Assembly: GCA_022788085.1 (NCBI GenBank)
Contig: JALEWA010000050.1
Location: 1-41,367 of the forward strand
Direction: 5' to 3'
Source: Lachnospiraceae bacterium
GTDB lineage: Bacteria > Bacillota > Clostridia > Lachnospirales > Lachnospiraceae
DNA length: 41,367 nucleotides
This document shows positions 13,673 through 17,446 of this stretch, one piece after another. Made by a program: the position numbers and the translations under genes. Every line of letters starts with the position of its first letter. Positions within the stretch are counted from its first letter, which is position 1. The notes under the pieces were generated by a model. The model had not been told where the DNA came from. It saw nothing but the letters and a program-made list of their open reading frames with translations, and ran no database searches.

Positions 13673-13705
13673 CGTACAATCCTGCATATGCTTCATGCAT
13701 TTACT

Positions 13706-13867
13706 GATAGCTCCCCATCGAAACGATGACAGTCATATAGCTCTTAACTATATGCCCAAGACAAAGACCTGTAGGAAATCTTCTCTTTCGGCGTCTTTTC
13801 CTTTCCCTTTTAGTCATCAGTGCCTACCACCTCGTAAAAAGTACTAATAAAAAACGCGACCTCTATC
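13706..13867 (-). ncRNA. Lysine riboswitch (L box) aptamer
   Basis: The minus strand carries the conserved L-box pieces in order: GATAGAGGTCGC at the 5' side, TTAGTAC, GAGGTGGTAGGC, the AAGGGAAAGG segment, GCCGAAAG, TGTCTTGGGCATA, ACTGTCAT and the closing GGGGAGCTATC. P1 is GATAG (13863-13867) with CTATC (13706-13710). This pattern and its place before dapA identify it clearly. A promoter lies at 13895-13924 and a terminator at 13645-13672. Confidence 0.95.
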
Positions 13868-13894
13868 CTTACTAACTATTTATGATGTTAACTA

Positions 13895-15157: not shown

Positions 15158-15367
15158 AATATGTTCTCCCTTCTTATGCATACACTAAGAATTTTTTCTA
15201 GTATGTATTAACATTTATATTCTTTTCCACCCAACTTATTCCTGAATTGATCACTTTTTTCCAGGAACCGTTCGTGCTTTTTACCCCTTTTCGTTATCTT
15301 TCCAACTTTTCTCCCATTTTTTTTTCAAATTTCTACATATTTACACCAACACATTTTCATCACGCCA

Positions 15368-15396
15368 TTGCAAAAAGAAAGGGCTGATGCTATAAT
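15368..15396 (+). promoter_or_regulatory. Sigma-A promoter of typA
   Basis: TTGCAA (15368-15373) and TATAAT (15391-15396), spacer 17, with an extended TGC before the -10 box. The predicted transcription start, near 15403, falls at the left end of the 143-base palindromic element. The 170 bases to the left, up to 15190, are pyrimidine-rich and hold nothing that I recognise except a short TTCCTG/CAGGAA inverted repeat. Confidence 0.8.
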
Positions 15397-15399
15397 GTG

Positions 15400-15542
15400 T
15401 AACGGTTCAGAGCCAAGCAGAATTACTGAGAAATGCATATTGAATGCTTGCATTCGGATATGTATTTCTCAGGGATTCTATTTGGCGGATACGCCACAGC
15501 CGGAAAATGCTTTGCATTTTCCGGCTTGGCTCTGAACAGTTA
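15400..15542 (+). repeat. 143-base multibranched palindromic element in the typA leader
   Basis: The ends are 19-base inverted repeats with one mismatch (15400-15418 and 15524-15542; core GTTCAGAGCCAAGC). Inside are three hairpins. Hairpin 1 (15419-15479) is a long stem with arms AGAAT, CTGAGAAATGCATAT and GAATG pairing to CATTC, ATATGTATTTCTCAG and ATTCT. Hairpin 2 (15484-15495) is GGCG-GATA-CGCC. Hairpin 3 (15499-15525) is a perfect 12-pair stem GCCGGAAAATGC/GCATTTTCCGGC. Together they fold as a closed junction. TA dinucleotides bound the element, as expected for a non-autonomous mobile element with TA target sites. It encodes no protein and would be transcribed as the start of the typA mRNA. 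Confidence 0.85.
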
Positions 15543-15560
15543 TTTACTGTATGTGTGCTC

Positions 15561-15587
15561 GTAACTATGAGAGTACTGAATAGTTAC
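15561..15587. repeat. 27-base palindromic repeat, copy C
   Basis: Arms GTAACTAT and ATAGTTAC surround the centre GAGAGTACTGA, which is the reverse complement of TCAGTACTCTC, so this copy is oriented opposite to A and B in window coordinates, but the same way relative to its gene. It lies 30 bases before the typA start. Confidence 0.85.
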
Positions 15588-15616
15588 GTACGTGTATCAA
15601 ATATTTGGAGGTTCGT

Positions 15617-17446
15617 ATGAAACAAAAAAGAGAAGACGTCAGAAACGTAGCCATTATTGCCCATGTTGACCATGGTAAGACAACTCTTGTTGATGAGCTG
15701 TTGAAGCAAAGTGGTGTATTCCGTGAGAACCAGGAAGTAGCAGAACGTGTCATGGACTCTAATGACATCGAACGTGAGCGTGGCATTACCATTCTGTCTA
15801 AGAATACAGCCGTAATGTACAAAGGAACAAAGATCAACATCATAGATACTCCGGGTCATGCTGATTTTGGTGGTGAGGTTGAACGAGTATTGAAAATGGT
15901 TAACGGCGTTATCCTTGTTGTTGACGCATTCGAGGGTGCTATGCCCCAGACAAAGTTCGTATTAAGAAAAGCATTAGAGCTGAAGCTCCCTGTCATCGTA
16001 TGTATTAATAAGATTGACCGTCCTGAAGCAAGAGCCAATGAAGTTGTCGATGAAGTTCTTGAGCTTTTCCTTGAGCTTGATGCTGATGATTCACAGCTTG
16101 ACTGCCCATTCGTATTCGCATCCGCCAAGGCTGGCGTTGCTTCTCTTGATGAGGGTGAAATGGGAAGTGACATGACACCACTATTTGAAACTATCCTTGA
16201 CTATATTCCTGCTCCCGAAGGAGATCCTGATGCGGGTACACAGGTATTAATCAGTACAATCGACTATAATGAATATGTTGGTCGTATTGGCGTTGGTAAG
16301 GTTGATAACGGAACCATCAAGATAAATCAGGATGTTATCATCTGTAACCATCATGAGCCTGATAAACAGAAAAAGGTTAAGGTCAGCAAGCTGTATGAAT
16401 TCGATGGTCTGAACAAAGTTGAGGTTAAGGAAGCAGGAATTGGTTCTATTGTTGCCATTTCCGGTATCGCAGACATCCATATCGGTGATACGCTCTGCTC
16501 TCCTGAAAATGTTGTTCCTATTCCATTCCAGAAGATTAGCGAGCCTACCATCGCTATGCACTTTATGGTAAATGACTCTCCTCTTGCAGGACAGGAAGGA
16601 AAGTTCGTAACCAGCCGTCATCTTCGTGACAGACTCTTCCGCGAGCTTAATACTGACGTATCCCTTCGTGTGGAAGAAACAGAAAATGCAGATTCCTTTA
16701 AGGTATCCGGCCGTGGTGAGCTTCATTTATCTGTACTAATCGAAAATATGAGACGTGAGGGCTTTGAATTTGCGGTAAGTAAGGCTGAAGTTTTATATAA
16801 GACTGATGAAAACGGCAAAAAGCTTGAGCCAATGGAGCTTGCTTATATTGATGTACCGGAAGAATTCTCAGGTGCCGTTATCGAGAAGTTAAGCCAGCGA
16901 AAGGGTGAGCTTCAGAATATGGGTAAAGCAAGTGGTGGCTATGCAAGACTCGAGTTCTCTATTCCTTCCAGAGGTCTGATTGGATATCGTGGCGAATTCA
17001 TGACCGATACCAAGGGAAATGGCATCTTAAATACAAGCTTTGATGGCTACGGACCTTTCAAGGGAGAAATTCAGTACCGTAAGCAGGGTTCTCTGATTGC
17101 ATTCGAAGCAGGCGAGGCAATTACTTATGGTCTCTACAATGCGCAGGAACGTGGTACCCTCTTCATTGGACCGGGTGAAAAGGTTTATTCCGGTATGGTT
17201 GTTGGACAGACAGGTAAGAGTGAGGATATCGAAATCAATGTCTGCAAGAAGAAACAGCTTACCAATACCCGTTCTTCCAGTGCAGACGAAGCTTTAAGAT
17301 TAACACCACCAAGAATCTTAAGTCTTGAGCAGGCACTTGACTTTATTGATACGGATGAGCTTCTTGAGGTTACACCTACCAACTTAAGAATCCGTAAGAA
17401 AATTCTTGACCCTACTCTTAGAAAGAGAGCAAGCTTTAAGAAATAA
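15617..17446 (+). CDS. typA: Ribosome-associated translational GTPase TypA/BipA
   Basis: The 609-residue protein is full length for the family. It has G1 AHVDHGKTT, the switch region ERERGITI, G3 [15 protein letters not shown]4 NKIDR and G5 SAKAG, then EF-G-like domains III and V and the BipA-specific C-terminal domain ([18 protein letters not shown]). It binds the 70S ribosome near the EF-G site and helps 50S assembly and growth under stress. The ATG at 15617 follows GGAGG by five bases; an in-frame TTG at 15605 is not used. The unusual leader carries the 143-base element and palindrome copy C. Confidence 0.97.

What the first reader, a model, noticed from the sequence alone, without database searches (positions are those of the whole stretch)
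15400..15542. A 143-base, three-hairpin element forms the 5' end of the typA mRNA
The sequence shows 19-base terminal inverted repeats (one mismatch) enclosing three strong hairpins, so the RNA would fold as a closed multi-way junction. The best promoter in the region (TTGCAA-17-TATAAT) ends four bases before the element, so transcription should start at its edge. The ends are bounded by TA, as for non-autonomous elements moved by IS630/Tc1-type transposases. It could be a mobile repeat that became a leader, or a structured regulatory RNA. I do not know a described family with this architecture.
Basis: partly seen in the sequence, partly recalled or inferred. Interest (0 to 1): 0.75.

Follow-up and report, generated by a model that had tools for sequence, protein, structure and literature searches.

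The report
Jumping cloverleaf element in typA leader
A short mobile DNA element that folds into a three-hairpin cloverleaf has jumped into the promoter of a ribosome-associated gene (typA) in a gut bacterium, so that the gene's messenger RNA now probably starts with the folded element.

Summary
The structure is real: window 15396-15546 folds at -83.4 kcal/mol, z -12.6. It is a dispersed mobile element, not a typA riboswitch. A covariance model hits 14 of 38 genus genomes; a DNA pattern hits many Lachnospiraceae. Of 65 pattern-selected copies with a facing end, 29 have perfect 8-bp flanking duplications, 0.07 expected. A 1,817-bp single-ORF IS66 transposon with matching ends and 8-bp duplications lies in a genome that also holds a short copy. 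So it is an IS66 (ISBst12-type) MITE, not IS630/Tc1.

At typA it apparently inserted into the -10 box. A typA promoter of this type stands in 29 of 30 genus loci, -10 TATACT in 24; the window reads TATAATGT[element]TTTACTGT, a diverged duplication of TATACTGT. Transcription should then start inside the left end.

The fold covaries strongly (27 pairs with two-sided changes, 0 of 500 shuffles). Some sister subtypes score just below cut-off to Rfam Clostridiales-1. Any effect on typA is inferred; 29 of 31 leaders examined lack the element.

The parts
15368..15396 (+). typA promoter TTGCAA-N17-TATAAT (TG before the -10)
   Evidence: TTGC(A/C)A-N16-18-TAT(A/T)NT found upstream of typA in 29 of 30 genus loci, -10 TATACT in 24 of them
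15391..15398 (+). left target-site duplication TATAATGT (contains the -10 box)
   Evidence: relatives without the element, such as G014, G023 and G001, have TATACTGT here
15399..15542 (+). the MITE: 144 bases, left end GTAACGGTTCAG, right end CTGAACAGTTA with the terminal C missing
15399..15415 (+). left terminal inverted repeat, outer helix 5' strand (pairs with 15527-15543)
   Evidence: helix 1
15419..15479 (+). hairpin 1, GCUUGC apical sequence (CUUG-type tetraloop, label recalled)
   Evidence: 19 of 26 pairs have two-sided changes (helix 2)
15483..15496 (+). hairpin 2, TGGCGGATACGCCA
   Evidence: 97.7% of cells paired (helix 3)
15498..15526 (+). hairpin 3; fully paired here and in 3 other aligned copies, whereas 22 of 26 lack standard pairs at two consecutive positions (mostly G.A then A.G, read from the alignment)
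   Evidence: helix 4, columns 103/125 and 104/124; alignment A4
15527..15543 (+). right terminal inverted repeat, outer helix 3' strand; 15543 is also the first base of the right duplication
   Evidence: helix 1
15543..15550 (+). right target-site duplication TTTACTGT (6 of 8 equal to the left copy; each copy one substitution from TATACTGT)
15557..15587 (+). probable remnant of a second MITE family: right end CGTAACTATGAGAGTACTGAATAGTTAC (28 bases, 15560-15587) plus three bases; flanks GTATGTGT / GTACGTGT match 7 of 8 (chosen by eye)
   Evidence: 28-mer present 28 times, up to 2 mismatches, in this genome; 11 of 27 copies examined have a facing end 132-149 bp away with a perfect 8-bp duplication, the window copy has none; segments printed
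15607..15611 (+). ribosome-binding site GGAGG of typA, outside the element
   Evidence: read
15617..17446 (+). typA/bipA
   Evidence: TIGR01394, 929.7 bits, cut-off 757.3

Best explanation
The element is a non-autonomous mobile element (MITE) moved by a single-ORF IS66-family transposase of the ISBst12 type. It inserted into the AT-rich -10 box of the typA promoter and duplicated 8 bases, so one -10 stayed upstream with its -35. Transcription then starts a few bases inside the left terminal repeat, and the whole element becomes the 5' leader of the typA mRNA; it ends 74 bases ahead of the start codon. There it folds into a closed three-hairpin junction with the 5' end buried in the outer helix. 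The likely effect, inferred and not shown, is on mRNA 5'-end stability and leader length, not ligand sensing. SHOWN by sequence: dispersed family, termini, 8-bp duplications, matching IS66 element in another genome that also holds a copy, covarying structure, conserved promoter, flanks one change each from the relatives' -10. INFERRED: mobilisation by IS66, the transcription start, folding in the cell, any effect on typA. Whether the fold is kept by selection on the RNA, by copying between palindrome arms, or by both is open.
For: Dispersed copies. 8-bp duplication: 29 of 65 exact at length 8, none at lengths 9-14; shuffled flanks expect 0.07. IS66 element of 1,817 bp, two identical copies in GAM79, ends GTAACTATTCAGAACC / GTAACTATTCAGCACC, perfect 8-bp duplications; its 485-aa protein is PF03050 and NF033517 IS66 transposase; the same genome has a 143-bp copy with a perfect duplication whose right end shares GTAACTATTCAGAACC. 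Within the window's genus, a 69-aa PF03050 tail in G034 is followed by the end GTAACTATTCAGAACTCCC. An ISBst12-group element seen to transpose, ISDge4, is reported with ends GTGACTACTCAGCA / GTAACTGCTCAGCA, one ORF and an 8-base direct repeat (PMC12898284, passages). Promoter in 29 of 30 typA loci, -10 TATACT in 24; G014 and G023 have TATACTGT and no element. Covariation: 90.1% of cells paired, 27 pairs and 172 cells with two-sided change, 0 of 500 shuffles as high, slid controls 34.8-44.6% paired. Fold better on the + strand in 33 of 34 copies, mean -7.7 kcal/mol.
Against: The window copy's own duplication is only 6 of 8, after moving the right end by one base; with the end at 15543 it is 1 of 8, and shuffled flanks reach 6 or more of 8 in about 6 of 65 cases, so it rests on the relatives' TATACTGT. 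No intact IS66 partner was seen in the window genome: one 252-aa PF03050 frame covering profile positions 90-278 and a fragment matching 38 of a 39-residue tail with a GTATCTGTTCAGAACCCC end; that tail itself had no Pfam hit. PF03050 was not found in 3 of 5 genus genomes (window genome among the 5) nor in 5 of 10 other copy-bearing genomes. 15 of the 80 pattern matches have no facing end within 400 bp; left ends were chosen by the pattern. Only 6 of 70 covariance-model hits in the genus have perfect duplications, and many lack GTAAC ends. No expression data were seen for any copy.
Confidence: 0.85

Rival explanations
1. The element is a structured RNA with its own function (Clostridiales-1-like) that acquired IS66 ends and spreads as a transposon; its fold, CUUG-type loop and tandem G.A step are selected as RNA, for example to bind a protein or to protect the 5' end of host mRNAs.
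For: Covariation; G.U 120 versus A.C 26 cells on the + strand structure; 33 of 34 copies fold better on that strand; copies with GTAAC ends score up to 44.4 bits to Clostridiales-1, sharing the ACAUGAGCA / UGCGAAUGU arm, and several relatives without such ends score 30-38; some relatives without GTAAC ends look orthologous in several species (by eye).
Against: The G.U excess shrinks to 21:11 on a structure chosen without G.U; the other strand folded on its own gives 69 G.U to 45 A.C; copies are related, so cells are not independent. Orientation to flanking genes is only weakly biased (++ 19, -- 9, +- 10, -+ 9 of 65). The window copy lacks the tandem G.A step.
Confidence: 0.3
2. The fold is kept by DNA processes only: palindrome arms are copied onto each other by template switching, and the cloverleaf has no role as RNA.
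For: In 4 of 26 aligned copies (window, L194, L251, L007) hairpin 3 is fully paired where the other 22 keep two unpaired positions; in L194 the 5' arm has changed to the exact complement of an otherwise usual 3' arm (by eye).
Against: The unpaired tandem step and G.U cells persist in most of the 26 copies, which arm copying would erase; + strand asymmetry.
Confidence: 0.35
3. A cis-regulator dedicated to typA (riboswitch, thermosensor or similar).
For: Position at the 5' end of typA; a second species (G011) also has a copy in its typA leader.
Against: Absent from 29 of 31 typA leaders examined; the second copy is inverted, sits elsewhere in the leader and has its own near-duplication ATATTTTT/ATATAGTT; copies occur at many other loci.
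Confidence: 0.04
4. IS630/Tc1-type MITE with TA target duplication.
For: TA dinucleotides happen to bound 15400-15542.
Against: Intact copies end GTAAC..GTTAC and are flanked by 8-bp duplications.
Confidence: 0.01

Closest known systems
IS66 family, ISBst12 group (single ORF; e.g. ISDge4, PMC12898284, passages)
   Same: Ends GTAACTGCTCAGCA vs GTAACTGTTCAGAGCC; 8-bp direct repeat; one transposase gene in the GAM79 partner
   Different: The element here has no transposase gene and a structured interior
Rfam RF01699 Clostridiales-1 RNA (PMC2864571, passages)
   Same: Outer stem enclosing hairpins, a hairpin with a GCUUGC apex, an arm ACAUGAGCA / UGCGAAUGU shared with the 152-154-base MITE subtype
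   Different: Window copy has no Clostridiales-1 hit at E<=10; the GTAAC-ended copies seen stay under the 48-bit cut-off; 30 Clostridiales-1 loci examined (one, L332, probably misplaced) had other ends and no 8-bp duplications
BOX, RUP and SPRITE repeats of pneumococcus (PMC3049150, abstract and passages)
   Same: Short, dispersed, strongly folded repeats proposed to be non-autonomous mobile elements; BOX can be transcribed as 5' and 3' extensions of operons
   Different: Not compared by sequence here; other host
Correia, ERIC and Nezha repeats (named in PMC3049150 passages)
   Same: Small repeats with inverted repeats or strong folds, some proposed to be MITEs
   Different: Other hosts; not compared by sequence here

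Membership tests
MITE of the IS66 family (ISBst12 type) | terminal inverted repeats matching an IS66 element | tested here: met
   16 identical end bases between the IS66 element and a short copy in GAM79; window left end GTAACGGTTCAGAGCC
MITE of the IS66 family (ISBst12 type) | 8-bp target-site duplication | tested here: met
   family: 29 of 65 perfect, 49 of 65 at least 6 of 8; window copy itself 6 of 8, each side one change from the relatives' TATACTGT
MITE of the IS66 family (ISBst12 type) | no transposase gene, small size | tested here: met
   144 bases; 52 of 65 facing ends lie 139-156 bases apart
MITE of the IS66 family (ISBst12 type) | autonomous partner in the same genome | tested here: inconclusive
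   met in GAM79; in the window genome only fragments seen; none by PF03050 in 3 of 5 and 5 of 10 genomes
MITE of the IS66 family (ISBst12 type) | mobilised by the IS66 transposase | not testable with these tools
   needs an experiment
IS630/Tc1 MITE | TA target duplication | tested here: not met
   duplications are 8 bp
Rfam Clostridiales-1 | score at or above 48 bits | tested here: not met
   window copy: none at E<=10; best GTAAC-ended copy seen 44.4 bits (with more sequence and so stricter filters, did not list that copy)
typA riboswitch or leader regulator | conserved position upstream of typA orthologues | tested here: not met
   2 of 31 leaders, in opposite orientations

The most novel reading that the evidence does not exclude
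A structured RNA domain of the Clostridiales-1 kind and IS66 ends form one mobile unit that tends to land on -10 boxes and, by duplicating them, turns itself into the 5' leader of host mRNAs: a transposon-borne RNA module, selected as RNA, that installs folded leaders genome-wide. Rfam's orphan Clostridiales-1 RNAs would then belong to a larger clan of dispersed cloverleaf elements. Support: 13 of 48 reconstructed insertion sites overlap a promoter-like -10 with a -35, against 15 of 336 nearby windows; in AT-rich windows only, 12 of 37 against 64 of 427 (overlapping windows), with -10-like hexamers alone 23 of 37 against 222 of 427, so much of the effect is AT preference.
Probability: 0.25. 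Interest if true: 0.75.

Novelty: new variant of a known kind. Interest (0 to 1): 0.5.

Why it matters
It explains an orphan structured leader as a MITE, gives a concrete case in which target-site duplication can keep a promoter alive while replacing the mRNA 5' end, and links a curated but unexplained RNA family (Clostridiales-1) to dispersed elements in Lachnospiraceae. Leaders predicted to be riboswitches in these gut bacteria could be checked for GTAACTRTTCAG ends and 8-bp duplications.

Tried and rejected
Rfam at gathering score on the whole window (lysine riboswitch and two tRNAs only) and at E<=10 on 15340-15620 (5 weak unrelated hits). The typA-riboregulator idea was tested on genus typA leaders and dropped. 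IS630/Tc1 was dropped on the duplication length. G.U versus A.C asymmetry as proof of RNA selection is suggestive (120:26) but not decisive: without G.U in the structure it is 21:11, and the other strand's own structure gives 69:45. Promoter targeting is strong against nearby sequence and weak after matching AT content; the background windows overlap or come from the same loci. Mobility of Clostridiales-1 itself: 30 loci gave no 8-bp duplications at any offset tried, up to 6 bases (L332 probably misplaced). Literature: 'IS66' + 'MITE' + 'miniature inverted-repeat' listed 8 papers, none on Lachnospiraceae by title; 'miniature inverted-repeat transposable' + 'Lachnospiraceae' listed 3, unrelated by title; 'Clostridiales-1 RNA' listed 2, not opened, unrelated by title; 'Clostridiales-1' + 'structured RNA' + 'motif' listed 1, the original survey; 'ISBst12' + 'IS66 family' + 'tnpC' none; two of 'IS66 family', 'target site duplication', 'ISBst12' listed 8, one opened for passages. 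Rows dropped: of 75 hit rows, 3 were the opposite strand of the same place and 2 places (G030:C76, G023:C159) were not fetched, leaving 70. Of 118 stretches only the 80 listed were used. Of 72 hit rows, searches used the 25 best plus 10 genus copies (34 distinct); one search used 26 sequences chosen by me as the window's subtype, and its structure is the window's own fold. Gene context is from simple ORF calls: 47 of 65 copies had a called gene on both sides, 11 fell mostly inside a called ORF, 7 lacked a neighbour.

Full report
What is there. Window 15399-15542 is a 144-base element with near-perfect terminal inverted repeats around three hairpins. The RNA fold of 15396-15546 is -83.4 kcal/mol, 12.6 sd below shuffles. 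TTGCAA-17-TATAAT (15368-15396) is the one promoter-like site found in 15180-15620, a number no higher than chance, and no terminator-like site is found there. The downstream gene is typA/bipA (TIGR01394, 929.7 bits).

It is a dispersed family. DNA search finds one more copy in the window genome and copies in 4 other same-genus genomes (5 of 60 genomes matched, the window genome included). A covariance model built from 7 copies has hits in 14 of 38 genus genomes, most in G023 (20 rows), G011 (18), G000 (9) and G014 (8); many of the weaker hits lack GTAAC ends. One listed contig (JAFSCH010000039.1, L227) has the length and insertion flank of G023:C32, so G023 is probably that goat-rectum Lachnospiraceae assembly.

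How it moves. Of the 80 pattern matches (left ends fixed by the pattern), 65 have a facing end within 400 bp, 52 of them 139-156 bases away. The 8 bases on either side agree 8 of 8 in 29, 7 of 8 in 9, 6 of 8 in 11 and fewer in 16. Exact flank repeats peak at length 8 (29 cases, against 4 at length 7, 0 at length 6 and 0 at lengths 9-14); shuffled flanks predict 0.07 perfect cases. In the genus set 6 of 70 hits have perfect duplications. In GAM79 (AP018536, complete genome) two identical 1,817-bp elements have ends GTAACTATTCAGAACC / GTAACTATTCAGCACC with perfect 8-bp duplications and one 485-aa IS66 transposase (PF03050 146.7 bits; NF033517 263.2 bits, cut-off 180). The same genome carries a 143-bp copy with a perfect duplication whose right end shares 16 bases with the transposon end. 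In the window's genus, G034 has a 69-aa PF03050 tail next to the end GTAACTATTCAGAACTCCC, and G023 has repeated contig ends with a related tail and the end GTATCTGTTCAGAACC. PF03050 was found in only 2 of 5 genus genomes and 5 of 10 other copy-bearing genomes, so many hosts keep copies without a detected partner. A paper reports transposition of an ISBst12-group element with ends GTGACTACTCAGCA / GTAACTGCTCAGCA, a single ORF and an 8-base direct repeat (PMC12898284, passages).

The typA insertion. TTGC(A/C)A-N16-18-TAT(A/T)NT promoters stand upstream of typA in 29 of 30 genus loci; the -10 is TATACT in 24 and TATAAT only in the window. Relatives such as G014 and G023 read TATACTGTTAAAG with no element. 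The window reads TATAATGT, element, TTTACTGT: each flank is one substitution from TATACTGT, as expected of an old 8-bp duplication of the -10 box plus loss of the element's last C. Taken alone, a 6 of 8 match is weak (shuffled flanks reach 6 or more in about 6 of 65); the relatives' sequence carries the argument. With +1 some seven bases after the -10 (general knowledge), transcription would begin at about 15401-15404, inside the left repeat. G011 has an independent copy in its typA leader, inverted, with flanks ATATTTTT / ATATAGTT. So 2 of 31 leaders examined carry a copy. A probable remnant of a second, more abundant MITE family lies at 15557-15587 with flanks matching 7 of 8 by eye; its 28-base end occurs 28 times in this genome, and 11 of 27 copies examined have a facing end with a perfect duplication, the window copy not among them.

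Structure and selection. On 26 copies the window's structure forms standard pairs in 90.1% of cells; 27 pairs and 172 cells have two-sided changes (0 of 500 shuffles as high; further pair types 3 of 500), and slid controls pair 34.8-44.6%. In hairpin 3, 22 of 26 copies lack standard pairs at two consecutive positions, mostly a G.A then A.G step, beside a pair that is C-G in 12 and G-C in 11; the window copy and 3 others are fully paired there. Strand tests lean to RNA (33 of 34 copies fold better on the + strand; G.U 120 vs A.C 26) but weaken to 21:11 with a structure chosen without G.U, and the other strand's own structure gives 69:45. Gene context shows weak co-orientation (++ 19, -- 9, +- 10, -+ 9 of 65 copies, the rest inside a called ORF or without a neighbour). 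Insertion sites look promoter-like more often than neighbouring windows (13 of 48 vs 15 of 336), less so after AT matching (12 of 37 vs 64 of 427).

Relation to known RNA families. The window copy has no Clostridiales-1 hit. Sister copies do, below the 48-bit cut-off: the perfect-duplication copy G000:C29 scores 44.4 (not listed), and 6 of 8 loci of the 152-154-base subtype score 31.6-43.9, with the same ACAUGAGCA / UGCGAAUGU arm. Clostridiales-1 proper is above cut-off in 30 of 246 genomes sampled from the order, with at least 11 matches in several (11 was the number scored), but 30 loci examined showed no 8-bp duplications. The original survey marks it as probably an RNA and probably not cis-regulatory (PMC2864571, passages). 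I read this as shared ancestry of a cloverleaf module, parts of which carry IS66 ends; the direction of descent is not shown.

Verdict. An IS66-type MITE with a covarying cloverleaf interior, inserted at and duplicating the typA -10 box. Identity is well supported (about 0.85); the leader role is likely (about 0.75, inferred); an effect on mRNA stability is a guess (about 0.4).

Noticed in passing
window 15557-15587; 28-mer CGTAACTATGARRGTACTGAATAGTTAC: Second MITE family with GTAACTRTTCAG-type ends, full copies 132-149 bp, abundant in the genus (end matches with up to 2 mismatches: 56 in G023, 49 in G030, 30 in G008, 28 in the window genome; matches in 18 of 38 genomes); probable remnant in the typA leader.
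   Followed up: partly
L091/L104/L111, L122/L124, L117/L123: Cloverleaf elements without GTAAC ends whose flanks look alike between G000, G014 and G023 (two or three of them per set), as if orthologous and kept in place (by eye).
   Followed up: no
L311-L335, L166-L170: Clostridiales-1 is a multi-copy dispersed element in many genomes of the order, with variable outer stems; several copies are flanked by TA on both sides (by eye).
   Followed up: partly
window 13700-13873 (-): Lysine riboswitch (RF00168, 124.6 bits) upstream of a dapA-like gene on the minus strand (gene name recalled from its sequence).
   Followed up: no
G030 loci L074, L085, L093, L126: Set of 116-base cloverleaf elements with shared outer sequence GCAGTGCC..CACTGC and similar flanks in one genome.
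   Followed up: no
G000:C61:6492-7043 (L054): Truncated IS66-like reading frame (PF03050) in the window genome, with the near-end GTTACTGTTCAGTGG about 80 bases beyond it.
   Followed up: no
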